Assembly (NCBI RefSeq): GCF_001548375.1
Contig: NZ_AP017295.1
Coordinates: forward strand, 4,250,501 to 4,314,500
Reading direction: 5' to 3'
Source: Nostoc sp. NIES-3756
Lineage (GTDB): Bacteria; Cyanobacteriota; Cyanobacteriia; Cyanobacteriales; Nostocaceae
DNA: 64,000 bases
The stretch's first letter is position 1; every line of letters starts with the position of its first letter. A program made the translations under genes and the position numbers. Of this stretch, positions 4,003 to 16,307 are shown piece by piece. The notes under the pieces were generated by a model. It had not been told where the DNA came from and searched no databases. It worked only from the letters and a program-made list of their open reading frames with translations.

Positions 4003-5139
4003 CTAGTTTACCCCGTGAGGGGAATTAATCAAGTGAAAGCAGTACGGAAGCTTTTTATCCGAAAAAGGAGAGTATTGTTTCAGTCCCCGTGAGGGGAATT
4101 AGTTAGTTGAAAGTTGGCGAGTCGATACAGCCAAGGCCGCCCGGAGGTCTGAGTTTCAGTCCCCGTGAGGGGAATTAGTTAGTTGAAAGGCAATGTCAAG
4201 AAATTTAGGAGAAATCATGGGGCGGTTTCAGTCCCCGTGAGGGGAATTAGTTAGTTGAAAGCTTTCTCAAGCATAATATTTACTGTATTGATTCAGATGT
4301 TTCAGTCCCCGTGAGGGGAATTAGTTAGTTGAAAGTTCATTCTCTCGCCTTAGCATCTCGTTTTCAGGTTTCAGTCCCCGTGAGGGGAATTAGTTAGTTG
4401 AAAGCACCACCCTTGAGTAAATTAAATCCACCAGTCAGGCGTTTCAGTCCCCGTGAGGGGAATTAGTTAGTTGAAAGGCAGAAGGCAGAAGGTTATTGTT
4501 TAAGTTTGTTAATTGAGGAGTTTCAGTCCCCGTGAGGGGAATTAGTTAGTTGAAAGCTAAAATTAGATGTGGCCCTAACATAGCTGCGATCGGTTTCAGT
4601 CCCCGTGAGGGGAATTAGTTAGTTGAAAGATAGCCTCCCTGTAGGTAGGGGAGGCTATTTTATAATGTTTCAGTCCCCGTGAGGGGAATTAGTTAGTTGA
4701 AAGCTTGCAACCCCGTGTGGTGAAAACCGCCAACGTTCTGTTTCAGTCCCCGTGAGGGGAATTAGTTAGTTGAAAGACCTAAATTTTCTGGGTCATCTAA
4801 TGAAGTAATAAGTTTCAGTCCCCGTGAGGGGAATTAGTTAGTTGAAAGATTTGCCGACCATATACTACCACCTGTAGAAATCCGTTTCAGTCCCCGTGAG
4901 GGGAATTAGTTAGTTGAAAGTAAAGTTGGTTTTAAATTTATGTGTGTACTTGTTAACGTTTCAGTCCCCGTGAGGGGAATTAGTTAGTTGAAAGTCAATC
5001 GGCTTTGTGCATTGAGTCAAGAAATCAAGTTTCAGTCCCCGTGAGGGGAATTAGTTAGTTGAAAGTGATGTGCCATTAGTGCCTTGATGGTTGCTGATAT
5101 TCGTTTCAGTCCCCGTGAGGGGAATTAGTTAGTTGAAAG
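4003..5139 (-). CRISPR. type I-D CRISPR array, 15 perfect 37-bp repeats plus one degenerate terminal repeat
   Basis: Identical 37-bp repeats start at 4077, 4153, 4225, 4299, 4368, 4441, 4520, 4593, 4667, 4740, 4812, 4884, 4958, 5029 and 5103. A degenerate copy with several differences at both ends lies at 4003-4039. The 15 spacers are 32-42 bp. On the minus strand the repeat starts CTTTCAAC and ends GGGGACTGAAAC, with a CCCC/GGGG stem suited to Cas6 cutting. This would leave an 8-nt ACTGAAAC handle, as in cyanobacterial I-D arrays. The decayed repeat at the left and cas2 at the right place the leader at 5140-5348, so transcription and newest spacers run from the right. Spacer 4630-4666 is a hairpin; spacer 4478-4519 carries tandem GCAGAAG units. 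Confidence 0.97.
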
Positions 5140-5821: not shown

Positions 5822-6799
5822 TTATCGCAAGACTAGAGGTTTATAGGGTATTCCTTCTTGTAAATGCCGACTTAGCAACCGGGCTTGCAATTCTATAGCG
5901 CGGCGATAAGTGCATCGGTACTCAAAAACAGGATGCTTAAAATCATCATTCATCTTGCGTTCAAATGCTTGCAAAAAAGATTTTTTCGCAGCTTCTTTTA
6001 ACCGATAAGCGCCTAAACTCTCAGTAAAATCCTGGGGTTGAATTTCCCGCTTGTGCAGGACTGTCAACACCACACTATCAGCTATCAAAGCCCGAAATTC
6101 CTCCATTAAATCGAGTACCATAGAAGGCTGACCATGATGAACTTCATGTAGGTAGCCAATATATGGATCTAACCCTGCAACATGAACCGCAGCCGTTACT
6201 TGGACGCGAAGTAACCCATAAGCAAAACTAAGAAGGGAATTAACAGGATCAGTGGGTGGACGACGATTTCTGCCCGTGAAAGTCCATTGTTTTCCTACCA
6301 TGCTTGGCCAGCAAGCGAAATATTCCCGTGCGGCTAGACCTTCAATACCCCTAACTTGGTCTATAGTCTTCTGAGATTTAACTAAGCTTTTACGTTCTTT
6401 AAGTGGATTATCGCGCTCATTATTGCGGTACAAAACTTGATATTGATTATGAATCTTTGCAGTAACGATCGCCTTCACTAATTCCAAACGCCGCACGGGG
6501 TCATTATATAATTGATACTGTGCTAATCTCAATTGACCATTACGCGAATAACCAGGAAGTGCAGAACCTAAATACTTACCAAAGTGAGAAAGGTAATGAA
6601 CGGGCATTCCTAATTCTAAGGCATAAACAAGGGCATCACCTGTAACTTGGGGATTCCCCATCAGAACTACTTGTTCTACAGTTTGTGCAGGAATACTTTG
6701 TTTTTTCCAAGAACCATCTTCTTGCTTTAAGGCAATATTAAAAGCTTCATAGTTCTTGCTTAAAACAGCATCAGCTTGGGTAACGTATAAGACTGACAT
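5822..6799 (-). CDS. cas1: CRISPR-associated endonuclease Cas1 (type I-D)
   Basis: A 325-residue integrase that inserts new spacers at the leader-proximal repeat with Cas2. It starts with the usual beta-rich domain (SVLYVTQADAVLSKNYEAF) and has an all-helical C-terminal domain. The conserved metal site is visible in LHEVHHGQPSMVLDLMEEFR (about 215-234), with the catalytic His and acidic residue, and in the upstream GLAAREYFACW segment holding Glu. Length and motifs are intact, so spacer acquisition should still be possible. It lies 91 bp downstream of cas4. Confidence 0.96.
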   Translation of the reverse strand: MSVLYVTQADAVLSKNYEAFNIALKQEDGSWKKQSIPAQTVEQVVLMGNPQVTGDALVYALELGMPVHYLSHFGKYLGSALPGYSRNGQLRLAQYQLYNDPVRRLELVKAIVTAKIHNQYQVLYRNNERDNPLKERKSLVKSQKTIDQVRGIEGLAAREYFACWPSMVGKQWTFTGRNRRPPTDPVNSLLSFAYGLLRVQVTAAVHVAGLDPYIGYLHEVHHGQPSMVLDLMEEFRALIADSVVLTVLHKREIQPQDFTESLGAYRLKEAAKKSFLQAFERKMNDDFKHPVFEYRCTYRRAIELQARLLSRHLQEGIPYKPLVLR

Positions 6800-6890: not shown

Positions 6891-7493
6891 CTAATCGTTG
6901 TCGTTGTTGGTTAAATTGATTTTTGCGAGTTGTTGCACTTCAAAAGGTAGACAAATTTCTTTCAAACTACATGATTGACATTTTTTCTTGTTGTCAATTG
7001 GTGTAGGCATAGTTTTATATGCAGCTAGTTGAGCAAGTGCGATCGCCTGTTCAGTCATCTGTCGCAGTTGCGGTGTCAATGCTACCGTCTGTCTGCGGCG
7101 GTTGGCGTGGTAGAATATTTCACCATAGGAGATGCTGCGTCCAGTGCGTTCTTCTAAACACAAAGCTGCTGCACAAAGTTGAAAATGGTCGTTGAGATGC
7201 TGCGCCATTTTGCCTTTTTTGTATTCCACTGGCACAAGCTGACCATCACATTCTTCCACAGCATCAATAATACCAGCAACTTTTAGGCGATCGCTCCACA
7301 CCCATTGCTGTTGATGAACCAGTGTTTCCCCTTCTTGAAAAGTAGTTTCTTCATTCACATTACGGTGTATGTGCCGACCCAAAATAATGTGTTCATTATC
7401 TTCCATCTCACCCAAAACATATTCCAAATAAAATCTGCGTGGACAATATTCCCAAGCGTTCAGATACGCTAGGGGCAAATAATCTTCCGTCAT
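6891..7493 (-). CDS. cas4: CRISPR-associated exonuclease Cas4
   Basis: A 200-residue PD-(D/E)XK nuclease with an iron-sulfur cluster that trims prespacers and selects their PAM during adaptation. The cluster ligands are the N-terminal Cys of EYCPRRFYLEYV and three C-terminal Cys in CQSCSLKEIC. The nuclease core shows GIIDAVEE (metal-binding Asp) and LVPVEYKKGK (E-x-K). Good length. It sits between cas6 and cas1, the usual I-D position, with an inserted palindromic repeat in the 58-bp gap to cas6. Confidence 0.94.
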   Translation of the reverse strand: MTEDYLPLAYLNAWEYCPRRFYLEYVLGEMEDNEHIILGRHIHRNVNEETTFQEGETLVHQQQWVWSDRLKVAGIIDAVEECDGQLVPVEYKKGKMAQHLNDHFQLCAAALCLEERTGRSISYGEIFYHANRRRQTVALTPQLRQMTEQAIALAQLAAYKTMPTPIDNKKKCQSCSLKEICLPFEVQQLAKINLTNNDND

Positions 7494-7551: not shown

Positions 7552-8358
7552 TTACGAATTACGAATTGATACCTGTCCCATCCCCATCGCTGTTTTACGT
7601 CCTACTCCAGCAAAGCAGGCAAAATTAGCTAATACTGTCGCTATTTTTGCTTGTTCACTATCCTTAAATCGATACCTTACCCAACCTTCAGCCCCAATTT
7701 CTCCAGCAACTTCTAGCTGTAAAGCGAAAGTTTTTAATTCATAGCCAGAAACAACAGCTTGCCACTCTACAGCCGGAAACCTTAATTCTTGAGGAGCAAA
7801 ATAATTCCATCGTCGTAACAAACTATTAAATACTAATTCTGGTAAAGGAAATGGCTGTACTTCTTGTTTTTGCTTAAAACTTGTAGGTGAGAGAAATTTG
7901 AGAGTGATTTCATCAAAAATTTTATCTACATTTGCCAGTTTGGCGTAATCTGAAATATCTACTAAAGGATGAGTATCTGGCAACGTATAAGTATTGCGAA
8001 TGACAAAAGGGCAATTTCCCAGATAGAGACGTTGATTATCCCAATTTTCTAACCCTTTCAACAGTAAATCAATCAAATTCCCATCTAACAAACAGATGCG
8101 AAAAACAAAATTATCTCCTAATTTTGTCTTGGGTTGGCGACGATATCCAATTAATCCCGAAAGAGTAAATGGTGAGATTTGGGTGCGGTGAATGATATCT
8201 GCTGTTTGGGGATCTGCCAAAGTCAGCCAGTCCATAAATTGAGAGTGAAGCGCCCTTCCCAAGCTGACAGGAATTGGTTGCTGTGAAGCTGCACCTAGCT
8301 CAATCACCACAGCATATAAGTTAGCAGATTTAGGCGGTGATAGTAGTGCCGCATCCAT
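7552..8358 (-). CDS. cas6: CRISPR-associated endoribonuclease Cas6
   Basis: A 268-residue RAMP-fold ribonuclease that cuts the array transcript inside each repeat to make crRNAs. The C-terminal glycine-rich loop CFAGVGRKTAMGMGQV (about 249-264) is the family hallmark. An internal LSGLIGYRR segment resembles the conserved central RAMP strand. The start codon overlaps the end of csc1 by 29 bp, which implies translational coupling and supports this ATG. Its partner hairpin is the CCCC/GGGG stem in the adjacent repeats. Confidence 0.9.
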   Translation of the reverse strand: MDAALLSPPKSANLYAVVIELGAASQQPIPVSLGRALHSQFMDWLTLADPQTADIIHRTQISPFTLSGLIGYRRQPKTKLGDNFVFRICLLDGNLIDLLLKGLENWDNQRLYLGNCPFVIRNTYTLPDTHPLVDISDYAKLANVDKIFDEITLKFLSPTSFKQKQEVQPFPLPELVFNSLLRRWNYFAPQELRFPAVEWQAVVSGYELKTFALQLEVAGEIGAEGWVRYRFKDSEQAKIATVLANFACFAGVGRKTAMGMGQVSIRNS

Positions 8359-9052
8359 AAGCTACTCCAACAGGTAAATAAGTTTTATTTGGTAGTTCCC
8401 AATAGTCTCCAGCCAGTTGCGCCTGACTGACTAAACTCACAGGTGGCATAACAATGCGGTTATATAACAATAGCCTGGATGATGTTGGTAAATCTAAGGG
8501 ATTTAAAGGATGCTTGCTGATATATTCTCCAGAACGCTGTTTTAAATCGGAAATTTCTGTGGCTTCAATTCGCACCTTAGCAGACCATTTTCCTAATCTA
8601 ATCCAATGGGGAATTTTGATAGTTTCACGGGCGAAAATATAAGTTTTATATTGACTACCCACTGCTAATTCTTTAGCGCGACCATAGTTAATAGGGTAAT
8701 TACGTTTTGCACCTTCACCACCAAATTGCACAGATTTACCATAATAGGCAACTTGTGCTGCTTTAAAGGTATTTACTTGATAAGACCAAACCACAGGTAG
8801 GGCAGGAAAAACATAGATTCCTGCATGGTTGAGGTGTAGCAGATTTTGCTCTTGAGTCTTATCTAAATAACTAGGCTTTTGAGCGATCGCACCCTTAAGT
8901 CGATAAGGTCTAGGAATATAAACTGCTTCAAATAAAGCATAGCTCAATGCCCAATTATGCAGATACTTTTCTGTTTCATATAAAATCCCCATTTCACGAG
9001 TCGCAAAAAATACATTATCGTGGAGGGTTAATTTGCATTCGTAAATGATCAT
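8330..9052 (-). CDS. csc1: Csc1 / Cas5d, type I-D Cascade subunit
   Basis: A 240-residue RAMP protein and the Cas5 of type I-D, which caps the 5' handle of the crRNA. The N-terminus IIYECKLTLHDNVFFATREM followed by GILYETEKYLHNWALSYAL is diagnostic for Csc1. The ATG at 9052 starts this conserved block with no residues to spare. The end overlaps cas6. The 170 bp upstream to csc2 hold hairpin repeats, so cotranscription with csc2 passes through structured sequence. Confidence 0.93.
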   Translation of the reverse strand: MIIYECKLTLHDNVFFATREMGILYETEKYLHNWALSYALFEAVYIPRPYRLKGAIAQKPSYLDKTQEQNLLHLNHAGIYVFPALPVVWSYQVNTFKAAQVAYYGKSVQFGGEGAKRNYPINYGRAKELAVGSQYKTYIFARETIKIPHWIRLGKWSAKVRIEATEISDLKQRSGEYISKHPLNPLDLPTSSRLLLYNRIVMPPVSLVSQAQLAGDYWELPNKTYLPVGVAYGCGTTITA

Positions 9053-9222: not shown

Positions 9223-10215
9223 TTATTTACCTTTGCCTTTTTTTCCGGCGATCGCACCGTAGGTTTCCGCGTAGATTTTGGTTTGCTGATACAGGTTTGT
9301 CAGTGTATCCCGCAAGCGAGTTTCATCTTGATAAATTGCTGCTACTTCTGTCAACAAACTATTTAATTGAGTCCCAGTAATTACTTGAGTTTTGCGGATT
9401 GGTTCTTGGTTGAGTAAATTAGTTACCACTTCTGTTGCTTTGTTGATTATGTCAGCAATTGGGGCATTGATATCTGGTTTTAAAGCATCATACAAAGCTT
9501 GGGTGAAATGGAGATTACTGAAGATTTCCCCATCACATACAGCAATACCAATAATATGATTTCCCATTGTGCCAGTACGTGATTCTTGTGCGCCATAACG
9601 ACGGGTTCGCATTAAGTTACCTAATACATACAAAAAGCCTTCATAAGTGGGATCGCGGAGAGTTTCTACTGTAGGGAATGTGATTTCTGGTAATACATGA
9701 TCCAACTCATTAATCGCACTCCGCATGACTCCTTGTTCGCTCATTGTTCCGCCTTCAAATGGTGCATTAAAGGTAAAACTGCGGTGTGATTGTTCGTAAG
9801 GACTGAGAGAAAAGGCTGAATCAGAGTAAACTTTAGAACGTTCCGAACCACTATCACCAATAGCAAAGCCATAAATAATACAGTCAGGACATTTTTTACA
9901 AGAATTTTCGCCGTTATATTCACAGAATTTATCTTTTTCTGTGGCATTGGCGCTAGTTAATTCTAAGGAACGTAATAATTCCCGACCACCTAAACGTTCT
10001 GGTGTAATTTGCTTACGTTTGAACATCACCAAGCGGCTGATAGCTTCTTTTGTATCTATTCCGGCTTGAGTACGTGCAGTATTGAGAACTCCATCTGTTT
10101 GAAATACTGGAAAAGATTGACTGTGACGCACCATTAAAAAGTGAACATATTTACCAGATGCTAAACGAGGGAAAGCAGAGGCAAATTCAGATTTAAGATT
10201 GTTAAGAATACTCAT
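9223..10215 (-). CDS. csc2: Csc2 / Cas7d, type I-D Cascade backbone subunit
   Basis: A 330-residue RAMP protein that polymerises along the crRNA spacer as the Cas7 backbone. LKSEFASAFPRLASGKYVHF at the N-terminus and FKRKQITPERLGGRELLR (about 66-83) are typical Csc2 blocks. Cysteines around CEYNGENSCKKCPDCIIYG (98-116) form a likely zinc site. GGTMSEQGVMRSAINELDHV follows. The ATG has a strong AAGGAGA Shine-Dalgarno 5 bp upstream, consistent with the high copy number needed for this subunit. It starts 10 bp after the cas10d stop. Confidence 0.94.
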   Translation of the reverse strand: MSILNNLKSEFASAFPRLASGKYVHFLMVRHSQSFPVFQTDGVLNTARTQAGIDTKEAISRLVMFKRKQITPERLGGRELLRSLELTSANATEKDKFCEYNGENSCKKCPDCIIYGFAIGDSGSERSKVYSDSAFSLSPYEQSHRSFTFNAPFEGGTMSEQGVMRSAINELDHVLPEITFPTVETLRDPTYEGFLYVLGNLMRTRRYGAQESRTGTMGNHIIGIAVCDGEIFSNLHFTQALYDALKPDINAPIADIINKATEVVTNLLNQEPIRKTQVITGTQLNSLLTEVAAIYQDETRLRDTLTNLYQQTKIYAETYGAIAGKKGKGK

Positions 10216-10225
10216 TTTTATCTCC

Positions 10226-10669
10226 TTATGATTGTGTTTTTTGGGTTTGTTTTTCTTGTAAAGCTAACCAACGATAAGCGAACTCAGCACCAGATTTAAT
10301 CCGGTTGCGGTTCTCTTGGAGTAAAGCGCGATCGCCTAGATAAAGTCCCATAAATAAGTCATCCACACAGGTGGTCATAAACTTATGAATTGCGGCTAAT
10401 TCCTGGGCTTTACGAGTAGAAATATCGACAGATTTATCCATTAAAAATGGTCGTTTATAAGCTTCTTGTCGTTCTATAGCATCGTTGAGTTGTCCCGCAG
10501 CTTGGAGGATAATGTCTTCTCGTTCTATCTGTTCGGGAACTGTCAATATTACTTCCAAAGCTTTGGAAAGTGGTAATAAAACTGCATGGCTAGATTCACC
10601 GACATTCACTTGATAAAATTGCCGATATTCCTCCACCAAACGGTTAATTAAATTTAATTTATCTGTCAT
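10226..10669 (-). CDS. cas11d: internal Cas11d small-subunit frame within cas10d (predicted)
   Basis: Inside the 3' end of cas10d, an in-frame ATG at 10669-10667 is preceded by AAAAGGAGA with 8 bp between GGAG and ATG. This is a better ribosome site than most real starts in the window. Translation would give a 147-residue, mainly helical protein beginning MTDKLNLINRLVEEYRQFYQ and ending with the Cas10d C-terminus. Independent translation of a Cas11d small subunit from the 3' part of cas10d is known for the Synechocystis type I-D system, so the same arrangement is inferred here. The site lies downstream of the premature TAG, so small-subunit synthesis would survive that lesion. Confidence 0.75.
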   Translation of the reverse strand: MTDKLNLINRLVEEYRQFYQVNVGESSHAVLLPLSKALEVILTVPEQIEREDIILQAAGQLNDAIERQEAYKRPFLMDKSVDISTRKAQELAAIHKFMTTCVDDLFMGLYLGDRALLQENRNRIKSGAEFAYRWLALQEKQTQKTQS

Positions 10670-11968
10670 CTCTTTATCTCCTTTTATCCAGATTTGGGCA
10701 TATTTCCAAATACGTTTGACATCTTCTTGAGTTGGTTCTCGTTTACTTTCGCGGAATCCTTCATTGGCGATCGCAAATACATTTAATACATCGGTAACTA
10801 AATCTCTGGCTGTACCATTCAAGGCTTGCCAACGTGCGTCCGGTGGGGAACTGCGATATTCTAAATGGATACTGTAAGTTGTCAGGAGTCGTTCTAATGC
10901 TGGTGATAACTCCTGTAATCTTAAGTTCGGACTTATACCTAACATTTGCCAAAATCCGGCGGGGCCATCTAGTTTAGACGACTCCACAAACTCTTGATCG
11001 CTGGCGTAAAGTGGGTCTGGGCTGCTAGTAGCAACGACTTTCACGCCCAGAAGTATAGGCAAAGCCAAGGCTAAAAAACTTGGTTCCACCCAAGCATCTG
11101 TAGTGGTTTTCCCCCTTGTAGTTGTATAAGTCATTGCCATAAATGGCAAGTCTGTGTGCGAGTAACTATCCCCATATCTGCCGGCTTCGGCTTCGTCCTC
11201 ATCTCGCCAAGGTAAAGTTTGCAGTCCGCTATACTGCATCCCCCCATCTAACCAATGTTTGCGGACTTCCCACAGGTTGACACGTTTGAGTTCCTTCACC
11301 AGTCGCCGCACGGCTACCGCAACTTGGGGTGAGTAGACGTAAGCCGGGAAAATGTATAAGAATACAGGCTGTTGTTCTTCTAGTTTTCCTGATGCACCAG
11401 TCCAGAAAGCTTGACGCATCAGCATTTCTAAAGACCATATTTTGGAAATACCGCGTTTGATACGTCCGCCTCCCAAGGCATTTTTGTTGCTGTATTGTTG
11501 CGGCTTGAACAGGACAACGGCATCTAGTTGATCCTCAGCATCAGGATCACCCGCACTTAAAGAACAAATGGGTTGATTATTGACTTTTGCCAAAGAATAT
11601 GTGTTAAGTTCATTCTCAAACTGGGTTGGTTGGTGAGTAGATGGGTAAACCTCCAAATATTGAGCTAAATAGTTGATAAAAGCTTCATGGGTAGGGCTGC
11701 TGGTTTCTTTGAGTAGGTGATTTTGTTCCGCCCAAGTAGCGAGGCGATCGCTTAATTCTCTTAAAAACTCTTCTACCTGTGTGTCAGATAAGGTTGCATG
11801 AGATGCTATGTAATGGGCTGCGGCTTGATACCAACCATAATTTACACCCCCAGATTGCACCTGTGTTTGTTCAGGAGTGATTTGATTCTGCAATTCCAAA
11901 GCTGACAGCATCCAAGGTATGTAGTCTTGACTACCTTCAAAAAATTCTCTCTGTGCCAAGATAATCAA
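10226..11968 (-). CDS. cas10d: Cas10d (Csc3), C-terminal 580 codons after an in-frame TAG
   Basis: This is the large-subunit body of type I-D Cascade: the degenerate palm-like part and the helical C-terminus that recognise the PAM and contact target DNA. The frame continues directly from the upstream HD half; only the TAG at 11971-11969 separates them. A TTG follows the stop immediately, but no Shine-Dalgarno precedes it. The next ATG (codon 20) lacks one too, so separate translation would need coupling or readthrough. No cyclase-type GGDD motif is seen, as expected for Cas10d. The joined length of 981 residues matches intact family members, which suggests a single recent nonsense change or natural readthrough. 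Confidence 0.88.
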   Translation of the reverse strand: MIILAQREFFEGSQDYIPWMLSALELQNQITPEQTQVQSGGVNYGWYQAAAHYIASHATLSDTQVEEFLRELSDRLATWAEQNHLLKETSSPTHEAFINYLAQYLEVYPSTHQPTQFENELNTYSLAKVNNQPICSLSAGDPDAEDQLDAVVLFKPQQYSNKNALGGGRIKRGISKIWSLEMLMRQAFWTGASGKLEEQQPVFLYIFPAYVYSPQVAVAVRRLVKELKRVNLWEVRKHWLDGGMQYSGLQTLPWRDEDEAEAGRYGDSYSHTDLPFMAMTYTTTRGKTTTDAWVEPSFLALALPILLGVKVVATSSPDPLYASDQEFVESSKLDGPAGFWQMLGISPNLRLQELSPALERLLTTYSIHLEYRSSPPDARWQALNGTARDLVTDVLNVFAIANEGFRESKREPTQEDVKRIWKYAQIWIKGDKEMTDKLNLINRLVEEYRQFYQVNVGESSHAVLLPLSKALEVILTVPEQIEREDIILQAAGQLNDAIERQEAYKRPFLMDKSVDISTRKAQELAAIHKFMTTCVDDLFMGLYLGDRALLQENRNRIKSGAEFAYRWLALQEKQTQKTQS

Positions 11969-11971
11969 CTA
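11969..11971 (-). other. in-frame amber codon splitting cas10d
   Basis: The reading frame around this site is ADRLA-TAG-LIILAQREFF. Frame is kept on both sides, so a single base change (for example CAG to TAG) explains the split. No indel, repeat or insertion is present at the site. Confidence 0.85.
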
Positions 11972-13171
11972 AGCTAATCTATCAGCGCGGATATCTGCAC
12001 CTTGTAATAAAAATGTTTTCTGTGCATCCGTTAGCTGTAACTTCTCTAAACGCTTGGGTGTGGCTGGAGATTTAATATTGGCGACTTTGATTTGTACCAC
12101 GCTGGGAAGTAGGCGAATCAAGTCAGCCGGGGTGAATAATTCTAATGTTTGGGGAGCGATTTTCATCCCCTTCCCATCGCGGACAAATCCCACATCACCG
12201 CTTTGGAAATATTGTACTAGTCCTGGTTTATCTCCATCCCCCCTAATCAAACTGTCCCAAACAGCCGTTTGGATATCTGCTAAGTCAGGGGTGACTAAAT
12301 TAGTGGGGGCGAGATATACTGCACCTTGAGCAAAATAAAGAATCGGTTCCCATGCAAGTTTACGGGCGAAACTGACGACGGCGTTATGAATTTGGTTGGT
12401 AACTAAACCGCGACAATCTCGCAAACGATGGTAAACCAATTTTTTGCGGATACTGAGTAAGTCTAGATGATCTCGCAAGCGATCGCCTTTTGTTGTTGTG
12501 ACAATCTCTGCGGGGTCGCCCATATGAACCGCCACATCTCCAAAGGCTAACAGGTGGCGGAGGATATCGTTTAAGCGACTCACATCTATAGTGAATTGGC
12601 GATTATCGTTTTCCCAGTTGGAAAGAATTGGGTTACTATCGACGTTGAATTGTGTATTTTGGGCTAAGTACGCAATTTCTAGTAAATAATCTCGCCATTC
12701 ATCCCAAAATAAAGTGAAGTCCAGTATTTCGCCCAATTCTTGGCATAAGTTGATAATTTCTTGAATTTCATGCGGTTTTGGTGGTGGTTGTTCTTCCCCT
12801 TTTCCCCGTACATATTTGTTGTAGTCGTGTAGGGTTAAGCCTAAACACAACAGGCGTTTTTCAACTTCTGGGAGTTGTAGGTGTTTGGGTAAATGGGTGC
12901 TGAGGTTCCATGCTGTTAATAGTCCGTTGAGGACGTGAACTAAGAGGCTTTGGTCTGGTTTCGCAGCATAGCGTTTAGCGTTTTGGTCAGCAAAGCGATC
13001 GCCTTGTTTAGTGAGTGTCTGATGATGGGTTTGTTCTGAACCTCCCATTGCGGTAATCAGTCCAAATTCTCTTTCCATTGCTGGTAGGGTTGTTTGGATG
13101 AAGGTCTGTAGGATGGGGTCGGTGTCGGATGGGAGGGTTTCTATGAGTAGGGTTTGTAGTAGTGTGGGCAT
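11969..13171 (-). CDS. cas10d: Cas10d (Csc3), N-terminal HD-nuclease half, ends at in-frame TAG
   Basis: The first 400 codons of the type I-D large subunit. The HD nuclease motif is LGLTLHDYNKYVRG, with His115-Asp116. LLVHVLNGL (His79) supplies an upstream ligand, and GDVAVHMGD a later one. In type I-D the nuclease HD domain belongs to Cas10d, not to the helicase Cas3d, and that division is visible here. The ATG at 13171 lies 10 bp after cas3d. If the TAG is obeyed, the HD part would be made as a free protein and interference would probably be weakened or lost. If read through, a normal 981-residue Cas10d results. Confidence 0.9.
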   Translation of the reverse strand: MPTLLQTLLIETLPSDTDPILQTFIQTTLPAMEREFGLITAMGGSEQTHHQTLTKQGDRFADQNAKRYAAKPDQSLLVHVLNGLLTAWNLSTHLPKHLQLPEVEKRLLCLGLTLHDYNKYVRGKGEEQPPPKPHEIQEIINLCQELGEILDFTLFWDEWRDYLLEIAYLAQNTQFNVDSNPILSNWENDNRQFTIDVSRLNDILRHLLAFGDVAVHMGDPAEIVTTTKGDRLRDHLDLLSIRKKLVYHRLRDCRGLVTNQIHNAVVSFARKLAWEPILYFAQGAVYLAPTNLVTPDLADIQTAVWDSLIRGDGDKPGLVQYFQSGDVGFVRDGKGMKIAPQTLELFTPADLIRLLPSVVQIKVANIKSPATPKRLEKLQLTDAQKTFLLQGADIRADRLA

Positions 13172-13181
13172 AGATGGGGGT

Positions 13182-15311
13182 TTAGAAGATGTAGGCTTGG
13201 GAGCGATCGCATTTGGGGATTCGCCATTTGAGGGCTTCTAGGAGGAGTGCATCTTGGTTGAAGGCGCAGGCGTAAGTTTGTTCGTCAGCGTCTCGTAGTC
13301 GGTAGAGTCCGAAGGTGGGGTTGAGGTGTAGGGCGCGGCTAACATCCCAGTGGCTATTGTCTGGAGTGCGGTTGACTTGGACTAGGAATGTGAGGAGTTT
13401 TTGTTTACGCAGACAGCGAGTTACTTCTGCTTGGGGGTGTCCGGCGATGCTGAGTTTGTCGATGAGGGAAAGGGTGCATTGCTTTCGTCGGAGTTCATCT
13501 GTACCGCGATCGCATTCCAAGGTTATCTGGAATCGTTCATCCGACCAGCGTTGAATTTTTAAGTAGACTTGAATATATTTTTCGGGAAATTCTGTAGGTG
13601 GGTGGTTGGCTTGTTGGGCTGCTTGCAGAAATTCTTCTCTGTTAATGATTTCGACTTCCGCATAGGGTAGCAGTCTGAGTAAATCGTAGGTGTAGAAGCG
13701 TCCTTCATCCCAGACGGCTGCTTGCAAATCGGAACCACCACGAAATCTTAAGAGTTCTTCTTGTACAGCTTCACCTACTTTGGTTGGCTCGTTTCCTAAC
13801 GTAAACCAATGTCCGCGTTTTTTATCTAATTGTTCACCATAAACCAGCCGCAAATCTTCGGACATACTAGCTTGTAGCTGCTGCATCACCCCTTCTTTTT
13901 TGGGACTCAAGCTAATTAACATTCCTTGGGCTTGGAGTGCGCCCCAATACTCACGGTATTTTTCAAACTCTTTGGGTGCATCGAAGGCTTCGGTAATGAT
14001 GTCGCGGAATTGTAGGCGATCGCATTCTTCAATTCCTGTTAACCTTTCTTTTAAACGTGCCATAATCCAAGGACTACGACTAGGTAACAAGACAAATGCT
14101 TGATAAGCCGAAAACCCAGCATGGCGACCGAGACGACCCAAGCGTTGGATAAAAGTAGCAGAATCACTCGCCTCAAAAATTAGCAGATGAATCTTAAAAT
14201 CCACACCCACATCAACCGCAGAAGTTCCTACCACCAGCACAGGTTGAGAAGCGGCTTCTAAATCTGCTTGAGTTACCGCCCTTTCTTGACGGTCAATTCT
14301 TCCGCTAACTTCCCTAACAATCACATCAGGAAGTAAACTTTGCAGTTGACGCACAGCACGACTCACCAGCGCCACAGAGTTGAGAATAATTAACCCTCGT
14401 CCTTTTCCCTCTGCTTGTAAAAGAGTGCGGATATTTTCGGCTTCTTTCGTCAGCCAAGTCAAAGAGTCAGTATCTTGGTCTAACTGCACAAATTCCAGGT
14501 TAACAGATTGGCATATTTGCCGAAACCCAGACTGAGGTTGACTAGTATCATTTCCTGAAACCTCCTTCACCTTAAAACCCGCCGTTCTGAGAATCTTCAT
14601 AAACTCAGGCTTGGGAGTAGCAGAAGTAAACAAAAACCGCAGAGGACGCTTTTTTGGGCGATTATGACGAATTAACAGCATACTGTTGAGAATTGCGGCT
14701 TCTTGATGCACACCAAAAATATGAAACTCATCAGCAATGTATAAATTAATGTTAATAGCCAAAGGAATCAGCAACTCCGTTCGACCATAGGCGGGGTTGA
14801 AATAGCGTAGATGTGTGATTAAATGGAAAATGTCGGGATTAGTCAAGATAACGTATTTCTGCTTAAATGTCAGCAGTAATTCCTTGAATTTATTACCCTT
14901 CTGGGCTAACTCTACTCGCCGCGCTAACTCTGCCCCGTAGAGAGTATCAATCAAAGTGAGTCCTTCTGGATTAAAATATTCGTGGTAGCGAAAAACTTGC
15001 TTTTGTTGGTCTGTCACCAATTCAATAGTTGGGTACAGTCCCAGCACACGCAACCAAGGATTGAGTAATGCAGCCAGATAAGCTGCTAAAGATTTACCAT
15101 CACCTGTAGCTGAAGTATTGAATATGACTTCACATTCTCCATCGAGAATTGCTGCATAAGTTTCTGCTTGATGAGAAGATAGAGGACAGTTAGAGCCTTC
15201 CCCAAAGTCCGGCGCTTGCTTTTTTACTTGGCAAACCTGCGTACAACCAAGAGGACAAGCCCCAACTCCCGGATTTAGTTGGGAATACAGGGGTAGTAAT
15301 TTGATTTTCAC
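13182..15311 (-). CDS. cas3d: Cas3d, type I-D helicase (Cas3 prime without HD domain)
   Basis: A 709-residue SF2 helicase that unwinds target DNA after Cascade binding. Walker A is TSATGDGKS (66-74), motif II DEFH (194-197), motif III TSATPKP (229-235), then GTSAVDVGVDF (362-372) and motif VI QRLGRLGRH (389-397). No HD nuclease domain is fused, as expected for I-D. The first 45 residues hold four cysteines (C19, C23, C27, C42) in a zinc-finger-like spacing. The GTG at 15311 is the only start that keeps this N-terminus. It heads the cas operon, and its start is about 50 bp from the divergent WYL regulator. Confidence 0.92.
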   Translation of the reverse strand: MKIKLLPLYSQLNPGVGACPLGCTQVCQVKKQAPDFGEGSNCPLSSHQAETYAAILDGECEVIFNTSATGDGKSLAAYLAALLNPWLRVLGLYPTIELVTDQQKQVFRYHEYFNPEGLTLIDTLYGAELARRVELAQKGNKFKELLLTFKQKYVILTNPDIFHLITHLRYFNPAYGRTELLIPLAININLYIADEFHIFGVHQEAAILNSMLLIRHNRPKKRPLRFLFTSATPKPEFMKILRTAGFKVKEVSGNDTSQPQSGFRQICQSVNLEFVQLDQDTDSLTWLTKEAENIRTLLQAEGKGRGLIILNSVALVSRAVRQLQSLLPDVIVREVSGRIDRQERAVTQADLEAASQPVLVVGTSAVDVGVDFKIHLLIFEASDSATFIQRLGRLGRHAGFSAYQAFVLLPSRSPWIMARLKERLTGIEECDRLQFRDIITEAFDAPKEFEKYREYWGALQAQGMLISLSPKKEGVMQQLQASMSEDLRLVYGEQLDKKRGHWFTLGNEPTKVGEAVQEELLRFRGGSDLQAAVWDEGRFYTYDLLRLLPYAEVEIINREEFLQAAQQANHPPTEFPEKYIQVYLKIQRWSDERFQITLECDRGTDELRRKQCTLSLIDKLSIAGHPQAEVTRCLRKQKLLTFLVQVNRTPDNSHWDVSRALHLNPTFGLYRLRDADEQTYACAFNQDALLLEALKWRIPKCDRSQAYIF

Positions 15312-15362
15312 GTTAAGCTTGTGGTCTTAGTTTTCACAAGTTTAATACATAGAAAAATAGAG

Positions 15363-16307
15363 ATGGTATCAAAAAATGATGTTAACTCTAATCAATTGGG
15401 GTTTTCATTAGAAATACTGAAACTACTGGCACAAAAACTACACAAGAAAGCAGAATTGAGCATTGCATTAGGCGATCGCGGTTTCGAGTCGGGAGACTTA
15501 TCCCAGAAAATCGTGCGTACAATAGGTAAACTAAGGGACTGCGGTTTTGAAATCAACAGCGCACCTAATCGTCCTTATGAGTTGGTAGAATCAGCCTTTC
15601 CCGTCATCCTGTCAGCAGAACAACGACAAGCTTTAGCAATGGCGGCTGATTTACTTGCAGATATGGGTTTCTCTGCACAAGCCAGCCAAATTTATCGCAT
15701 TGGCAACTTCAGCAATATTACTTCCAATCTCGCCGCAGACTTTCATCCCCCTGCTGACTATAGTGAAGATAATTTAGATGAGATTTTGCGTCAGATACAA
15801 CAACGCCTACAACAAAAACGCCGTTTCGTAATTTGGTATCGTAACGCTAAGGGCGATGAAAGACACTGGGATCTAGATAAATCAGAATTAAGATTACATA
15901 ATGGGACATTGTATTTATTTGCCTTAGTTCCCGATTGGTATAGCTGGAATATTCCCACTAAACCCAATGTTGAACAAAACTCAGCTTTTAGAGTAGATCG
16001 AATCACCCGAATTGGTGCAGCTTCTCATACACCTTGGACTTATACTAAATTCCCCACTATAGATATAACTTACCGATTGACAGGCGCTTTAGCCACATAC
16101 AAACCCCGCCGTCCTCATGAGCAAATCATTTCCTCATCAGACAACACAGACTATATTGATATTGTGACCGAAGAAGACTGTTTATTTTGGTTTCATCAAA
16201 GAGTATTACAATACGGTGCAAGTGCGACTGTTTTAAATCCCCCTTGGATTGCCCAAAAAGTTAAAGATACTCTTAAAAAAGCTTATGAGAACTACTCGGT
16301 TGAATGA
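15363..16307 (+). CDS. WYL-domain transcriptional regulator divergent from the cas operon
   Basis: A DNA-binding regulator of about 314 residues. The N-terminal part (about 1-90) looks like a winged helix. LSAEQRQALAMAADLLADMG leads into the WYL domain, whose core is RRFVIWYRNAKGDERHWDLD, ALVPDWYSW and FRVDRITRIG (about 150-225). In Synechocystis a WYL protein (Sll7009) in the same divergent position represses the type I-D system, so that role is inferred here. I chose the ATG at 15363; a GTG at 15321 would add 14 residues and collide with cas3d. The shared intergenic space is about 50 bp and must hold both promoters. Confidence 0.85.
   Translation: MVSKNDVNSNQLGFSLEILKLLAQKLHKKAELSIALGDRGFESGDLSQKIVRTIGKLRDCGFEINSAPNRPYELVESAFPVILSAEQRQALAMAADLLADMGFSAQASQIYRIGNFSNITSNLAADFHPPADYSEDNLDEILRQIQQRLQQKRRFVIWYRNAKGDERHWDLDKSELRLHNGTLYLFALVPDWYSWNIPTKPNVEQNSAFRVDRITRIGAASHTPWTYTKFPTIDITYRLTGALATYKPRRPHEQIISSSDNTDYIDIVTEEDCLFWFHQRVLQYGASATVLNPPWIAQKVKDTLKKAYENYSVE

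What the first reader, a model, noticed from the sequence alone, without database searches (positions are those of the whole stretch)
11969..11971. In-frame amber codon splits a full-length cas10d into HD and Cascade halves
The sequence shows one 982-codon frame (10226-13171) broken only by TAG at 11971-11969. Flanks are in the same frame, there is no indel, and no ribosome site precedes the downstream TTG. Every other cas gene looks intact. Either a single recent nonsense change has disabled interference while leaving adaptation and crRNA processing intact, or the stop is read through, or HD nuclease and Cascade body work as separate proteins. The last option would be a new I-D architecture.
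Basis: partly seen in the sequence, partly recalled or inferred. Interest (0 to 1): 0.8.

Follow-up and report, generated by a model that had tools for sequence, protein, structure and literature searches.

The report
Nonsense-broken CRISPR type I-D cas10d
A cyanobacterium's type I-D CRISPR system looks disarmed by one stop mutation in its large-subunit gene, an ordinary gene inactivation rather than a new two-part protein design.

Summary
In detail: one TAG (11971-11969, minus strand) is the only break in a 982-codon cas10d frame; the other cas genes are full length. Relatives carry glutamate there: 25 of 25 named loci, 6 of 6 fetched unnamed operons (the sets overlap). Among 386 cyanobacterial genomes, 58 with a match, no other Cas10d is divided here. 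The stop is not at the HD/body border but mid-helix, inside the PAM-recognition domain, between lysine finger and glycine loop. Neither half shows a significant loss of constraint. The internal Cas11d start downstream keeps the strongest ribosome site of the C half. Best reading: a recent strain-specific nonsense mutation disabling type I-D DNA interference, with Cas11d, crRNA processing and adaptation genes still encoded. Cas10d decay also occurs elsewhere. Readthrough is not excluded: a tRNA array here holds a tRNA-like element with a CUA anticodon, but it lies in a larger conserved RNA with a variable anticodon, and 2.06 Mb shows no clear excess of amber-broken genes. A base-call error cannot be excluded. 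Ordinary; low interest.

The parts
11969..11971 (-). in-frame amber stop TAG, codon 401 of cas10d
   Evidence: a Glu codon in relatives
11969..13171 (-). cas10d 5' part, 400 aa: HD site (H79, H115, D116, D212) and the first part of the PAM-recognition domain (K334)
   Evidence: residues named in PMC9123187 and PMC10212523 passages
10226..11968 (-). cas10d 3' part, 580-aa frame: rest of the PAM-recognition domain (G441), remaining body, Cas11d region
10226..10669 (-). predicted internal gene for Cas11d, ATG at 10669 (codon 835), strongest Shine-Dalgarno among in-frame starts of the C half (-8.9)
9223..10215 (-). csc2 (cas7d)
8330..9052 (-). csc1 (cas5d)
7552..8358 (-). cas6
6891..7493 (-). cas4
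5822..6799 (-). cas1, the only cas1 match found in this genome
5349..5642 (-). cas2
13182..15311 (-). cas3' helicase of type I-D
4003..5139 (-). CRISPR array: 15 identical 37-nt repeats (4077-5139) and a degenerate distal repeat (4003-4039), 15 spacers

Best explanation
A single, probably recent, strain-specific nonsense mutation has truncated the only Cas10d found in this Nostocaceae genome at residue 401, inside the PAM-recognition domain. Translation makes a 400-residue fragment that keeps the HD site but has only part of the PAM reader and none of the C-terminal body. No full-length large subunit is made, so type I-D interference against double-stranded DNA is most likely off. The separately initiated small subunit Cas11d, Cas7d, Cas5d, Cas6, Cas3' and the Cas1-Cas2-Cas4 adaptation genes are still encoded, so spacer storage and crRNA processing may persist. 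Shown here: the stop, its absence from the relatives examined, the conserved residue, the domain position, intact neighbours, no significant loss of constraint. Inferred: loss of function, recency, continued Cas11d translation, absence of any other C-terminal product.
For: Glu codon in 25 of 25 named loci and 6 of 6 fetched unnamed operons (the sets overlap); E401 invariant in a 19-row alignment that includes the window read as Glu. Only this genome among 58 matching of 386 has the C half in a frame of its own, apart from a decayed remnant and contig ends. Stop inside the PAM-recognition domain and mid-helix. No frameshift or second stop. dN/dS of the two halves 0.11-0.14, branch-unique changes not significantly different from the other cas genes. 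Cas10d decay elsewhere: G026 remnant with 6 stops, Nostoc sp. S4 deletion. Internal Cas11d start kept. One Cas10d and one cas1 match in the genome.
Against: No read data, so an assembly error is possible. No second strain of the species could be examined, so strain-specificity within the species is untested. The constraint test has little power for a recent event, and the halves' ratios are slightly above the 0.05-0.10 of intact pairs. No self-targeting spacer was found that would show interference to be off (only part of the genome for most spacers). A CUA-anticodon element exists in the genome.
Confidence: 0.83

Rival explanations
1. Base-call error in the deposited genome; the gene is intact in the organism.
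For: One substitution, no other damage, no significant loss of constraint. No reads were available.
Against: The assembly is 99.99% complete in 3 contigs. The site differs by a substitution, not by an indel in a homopolymer. That substitution errors are the rarer kind in finished assemblies is general knowledge, not tested here.
Confidence: 0.1
2. Split Cas10d: the two halves are made as separate proteins, by reinitiation or an internal start, and reassemble in the complex.
For: A TTG follows the TAG directly. Several cas starts of this operon, cas10d's own included, also lack a Shine-Dalgarno. Both halves keep constraint. Separately encoded HD nucleases exist in other CRISPR types (for I-A, PMC10212523 passage).
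Against: The break is in the PAM-recognition domain and mid-helix, not after the HD domain. No relative examined shares it. No ribosome site at the TTG, and the next ATG, at codon 421, has almost none (-0.5).
Confidence: 0.03
3. Amber readthrough: full-length Cas10d is made by suppression at UAG, perhaps by the CUA element of the tRNA array when the array is derepressed.
For: A tRNA-like element with anticodon CUA lies in a tRNA cluster (Rfam 51 bits), with a TGTAGTAT motif upstream. In Anabaena PCC 7120 the comparable trn operon is repressed by TrcR, and deletion of trcR raised readthrough of UAG and the other stops (PMC10272220). At the loosest threshold TAG makes 4 of 9 interrupted frames against 31% stop use.
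Against: The element is part of a longer conserved RNA; the array copies of the 18 aligned have CTA (5), CTT (7) or CTC (1) at the anticodon (my reading of the loop). At the middle threshold TAA:TAG:TGA is 3:2:1, close to stop use of 55:31:14%. TAG ends 242 of 783 long frames, so strong suppression would extend many proteins. In the paper, trcR deletion also raised other misreading and derepressed other genes; the effect was not traced to trn.
Confidence: 0.03

Closest known systems
Type I-D CRISPR-Cas of Synechocystis PCC 6803 (PDB 7SBA, 7SBB)
   Same: Whole-length Cas10d homology, same HD and PAM-reading residues, internal Cas11d start
   Different: There Cas10d is one intact protein; here its frame is cut at the residue equivalent to E393
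Decayed cas10d genes in other cyanobacteria (G026 remnant; Nostoc sp. S4)
   Same: Damaged type I-D large-subunit gene
   Different: Several stops or a large deletion with a frame change; here a single stop
Separately encoded HD nucleases of other CRISPR types (for example I-A)
   Same: HD nuclease as its own polypeptide
   Different: There the parting is at the HD border (general knowledge; split cas3 genes in I-A named in PMC10212523); here the cut is inside the PAM-recognition domain

Membership tests
Type I-D CRISPR-Cas | cas10d/csc3, csc2, csc1 and a separate cas3' helicase | tested here: met
   All above NCBIfam cut-offs, cas10d in two parts
Type I-D CRISPR-Cas | HD site H81, H115, D116, D210 of Synechocystis Cas10d | tested here: met
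   Window H79, H115, D116, D212 by alignment, all invariant in A3
Type I-D CRISPR-Cas | Cas11d from an internal start in cas10d | tested here: inconclusive
   ATG 10669 aligns with Cas11d residue 1 and has the strongest site; translation not observed
Type I-D CRISPR-Cas | Working DNA interference | not testable with these tools
   Needs an assay; predicted lost
Nonsense-inactivated gene | Stop inside a conserved region, absent from relatives | tested here: met
Nonsense-inactivated gene | Relaxed selection after the stop | tested here: inconclusive
   No significant relaxation (Fisher p 0.46 and 0.14 against all other cas genes; 0.33 and 0.097 against cas4, csc1, csc2 and cas3); little power for a recent stop
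Natural split Cas10d | Split conserved in relatives | tested here: not met
Natural split Cas10d | Break at a domain border | tested here: not met
   Between K334 and G441, helix 394-410
Natural split Cas10d | Start signal for the second part | tested here: inconclusive
   None at the TTG (+0.4), but cas10d's own ATG has none either (+2.4)
Amber suppression | A decoding CUA tRNA | tested here: inconclusive
   CUA tRNA-like element found but embedded in a larger conserved RNA
Amber suppression | Excess of TAG-interrupted genes | tested here: not met
   3:2:1 at the middle threshold, 4:4:1 at the loosest, 2:1:0 at the strictest (TAA:TAG:TGA), against stop use 55:31:14%; small numbers, 2.06 Mb only

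The most novel reading that the evidence does not exclude
CRISPR interference in this strain is under translational-stress control: cas10d carries an amber codon that is suppressed only when the normally silent tRNA array, which here holds a CUA-anticodon element, is derepressed. Full-length Cas10d would then be made only under stress on translation, such as phage attack.
Probability: 0.02. Interest if true: 0.85.

Novelty: new member of a known kind. Interest (0 to 1): 0.14.

Why it matters
If the simple reading holds, this is one more case of a cyanobacterium losing CRISPR interference by point mutation while keeping the locus, and a warning not to annotate the halves as separate HD and Cascade proteins. 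The strain would be a natural Cas10d-null that may still make Cas11d, useful for asking whether adaptation and crRNA processing go on without the large subunit. The CUA element in the tRNA array deserves one reporter test in its own right.

Tried and rejected
Split architecture: the C half was searched in 386 genomes of the phylum and short frames were looked for. A 587-aa frame seen earlier in G049 runs to a contig end. The fragments in G037 (frames of 850 and 120 aa) also lie at contig ends, judged from their coordinates.

A second intact Cas10d in the genome: none found. Many relatives carry a longer Cas10d (about 30% identical, mostly about 1100 aa); this genome shows no match to it. A cas10d match on PLSDB plasmids at megablast level: none.

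Self-targeting as a sign of lost interference: two of the 15 spacers were searched in the whole genome with up to 3 mismatches and matched only themselves. The 15 spacers and the 17 of a second array, against 2.14 Mb held locally, gave only short partial matches outside the arrays, best 16 to 19 bases. So 13 of 15 spacers were tested on about a third of the genome only.

Spacer targets: the contiguous array found nothing in phages (weak for short spacers). In plasmids one spacer, next to the degenerate repeat, matches five cyanobacterial plasmids at 88-92% (three annotated as a type IV secretion DNA-binding protein, two hypothetical). The flanks in the two that I read do not show a GTN PAM next to the match, so I draw nothing from it.

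Y RNA idea for the CUA element: a weak YrlA hit (27 bits, cut-off 69) lies in another cluster with related elements (L117), but the CUA element itself gave no YrlA hit and the genome has no TROVE match. The name is not adopted.

Dropped or failed: one search read three relatives in the wrong orientation (L004, L006, L008); those rows were dropped and one search replaces it. One search failed on a program option and on parsing; both were redone. Searches were waits for the fold.

Full report
Observation. The minus-strand frame 13171-10226 is one 982-codon cas10d interrupted only by TAG at 11971-11969, codon 401. The two ORFs match successive parts of the same Cas10d/Csc3 model. The operon, cas3'-cas10d-csc2-csc1-cas6-cas4-cas1-cas2, followed by a CRISPR array of 15 identical 37-nt repeats and one degenerate distal repeat, is otherwise complete. 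In 2.06 Mb of this genome (2.0 Mb of chromosome plus the window), 6 in-frame stops at the middle threshold had coding signal on both sides and no ATG within 12 codons; this is the only one with more than 158 open codons on both sides.

Relatives. Codon 401 is a glutamate codon in 25 of 25 loci found in the named genome collection, with no in-frame stop in the aligned pieces. Three of these are partial (L148, L163, L168, near contig ends) and one (L166, Nostoc sp. S4) has a deletion and a frame change further on. The six unnamed relatives whose operons I fetched have GAG or GAA there. The sets overlap: equal contig lengths suggest that G012 is Nostoc sp. CMAA1605, G004 Anabaena azotica FACHB-119 and G024 Cyanomargarita calcarea. 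Compared with GAG, as in the two nearest relatives, TAG is one base change. The neighbouring base (third position of codon 400) also differs from the two nearest relatives but agrees with three of the four more distant ones. No other strain of the same species was available to me.

Is it a split system? A profile of the C half was run over 386 genomes of the phylum; 58 matched at E<=1e-20. Apart from this genome, the one-piece full-length matches of this Cas10d clade (13 genomes) lie in frames of 955-1048 aa; this genome has 580. Shorter frames elsewhere are contig ends (G037; G049, checked) or a decayed remnant with six stops (G026). The solved Synechocystis Cas10d (7SBA) aligns over its whole length. 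By that alignment residue 401 equals E393. The papers place K326 (lysine finger) and G433 (glycine loop) in the PAM-recognition domain and H81, H115, D116 and D210 in the HD site (passages of PMC9123187 and PMC10212523). These map to window K334, G441, H79, H115, D116 and D212 (my count along the alignment). The stop therefore parts two PAM-reading elements; it does not part the HD nuclease from the body. The AlphaFold model of the read-through protein (mean pLDDT 72.5, pTM 0.52) has a helix at 394-410 with block pLDDT 91; Foldseek's top hit is 7SBA chain I (TM 0.59 by query length).

What can still be made. The TTG after the stop has no Shine-Dalgarno (+0.4 kcal/mol), but cas10d's own ATG has none either (+2.4), so this is weak evidence. 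The ATG at 10669 (codon 835) has the strongest site in the C half (-8.9) and aligns with residue 1 of Cas11d in 7SBA. Cas11d is known to be translated from an internal start in type I-D (PMC10212523 passages). It can still be made here unless polarity prevents it (inference).

Age. Nei-Gojobori dN/dS of this genome against the two nearest relatives is 0.14 for the N half and 0.11 for the C half. Intact pairs give 0.09-0.10 for both halves (two pairs of distant relatives) and 0.09 (N) and 0.05 (C) for the close pair G010-G012, so the halves here are slightly higher. Branch-unique changes do not differ significantly from the other cas genes (Fisher p 0.46 for C, 0.14 for N; against cas4, csc1, csc2 and cas3 alone 0.33 and 0.097). 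This fits a recent stop but has little power, because the branch is long (dS about 0.55 or more). A base-call error fits equally.

Consequences. One Cas10d and one cas1 were found in a 99.99%-complete genome. A second Cas6, fused to an HTH domain, lies near C1:1938656. A second array of 18 repeats near C1:4.428 Mb has no recognised defence gene among the five neighbouring ORFs that I scanned, of 12 of at least 150 aa. A search for the type III Cas10 palm gave one match just below the cut-off (25.4 against 27 bits). If the stop is real, type I-D interference is probably gone from this strain; Cas7d-Cas5d-Cas6-Cas11d subcomplexes and adaptation could persist (inference). No self-targeting spacer was found: two spacers genome-wide, the rest in 2.14 Mb only.

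Readthrough. I looked for an amber suppressor because that would change the verdict. RF00005 gives 63 matches (150 of 452 first-look candidates scored). ARAGORN on the 50 loci that hold them finds one tRNA with anticodon CUA, in a cluster at C1:2279042-2281017. The cluster resembles the cryptic trn operon of Anabaena PCC 7120, which TrcR represses; deleting trcR raised readthrough of UAG, UAA and UGA reporters together with other misreading, and the effect was not traced to trn (PMC10272220, passages and parts 3 and 4 of 8). The earlier paper on that operon was not held and is known to me by recall only. A TGTAGTAT motif is present upstream. Against suppression: the element lies within a longer RNA whose flanks are nearly invariant in 18 aligned copies, while the anticodon of the 13 array copies is CTA (5), CTT (7) or CTC (1) (my reading of the loop). 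TAG ends 242 of 783 long frames in 2.0 Mb. Interrupted frames without a nearby ATG show TAA:TAG:TGA of 2:1:0, 3:2:1 and 4:4:1 at three thresholds, cas10d included, against stop use of 55:31:14%. The numbers are small, and TAG is somewhat raised only at the loosest threshold. I rate suppression at about 3%.

Literature. Searches for Cas10d and type I-D, for interrupted or inactivated systems and for tRNA arrays with amber anticodons in cyanobacteria showed, in the listings that I saw, no paper describing this gene or a natural split Cas10d. The library holds open-licence papers only and the listings were capped, so this is a limited statement.

Verdict. An ordinary, probably recent nonsense inactivation of a CRISPR gene in one genome; the split-protein reading should be dropped unless sister strains share the stop.

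Noticed in passing
L098:9455-9584 (G000:C1 about 2.2795 Mb): tRNA-like element with anticodon CUA, inside a longer stem with nearly invariant flanks, in a tRNA array. Copies in relatives have CTA, CTT or CTC; related elements with the same flanks occur elsewhere in this genome.
   Followed up: partly
L098:9284-10750: Several tRNA-like units of the array seem to carry a similar insert of about 28 bases in the T arm, and one degenerate unit (about 9285-9383) may have a second CUA loop; seen by eye, not called by ARAGORN or Rfam.
   Followed up: no
L117 (G000:C1:5645400-5647500): A cluster of tRNA-like elements sharing the flanks of the CUA element, with a weak Rfam YrlA hit (27 bits, cut-off 69); the genome has no TROVE match.
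   Followed up: partly
L206:9742-11033 (G000:C1 about 4.428 Mb): A second CRISPR array of 18 repeats with a closely similar repeat and no recognised cas gene among the five neighbouring ORFs scanned.
   Followed up: partly
L306:18179-19294 (G000:C1 about 1.938 Mb): A Cas6 with a C-terminal HTH domain away from the type I-D operon.
   Followed up: partly
window 15321-16307: A WYL-domain gene divergent from cas3', the likely regulator of the operon.
   Followed up: no
L011-L031 and further rows: A longer Cas10d (about 30% identical, mostly about 1100 aa) is present in many relatives, often in the same genus, but gave no match in this genome.
   Followed up: partly
L033:9523-10518 (csc2 of G012): csc2 of G012 differs from G010 far more (dS 0.40) than the neighbouring cas genes do (dS 0.07-0.16), which suggests local recombination.
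   Followed up: no
window 4040-4076: The spacer next to the degenerate repeat matches conjugative or other cyanobacterial plasmids at 88-92%, three times within a type IV secretion DNA-binding gene.
   Followed up: partly
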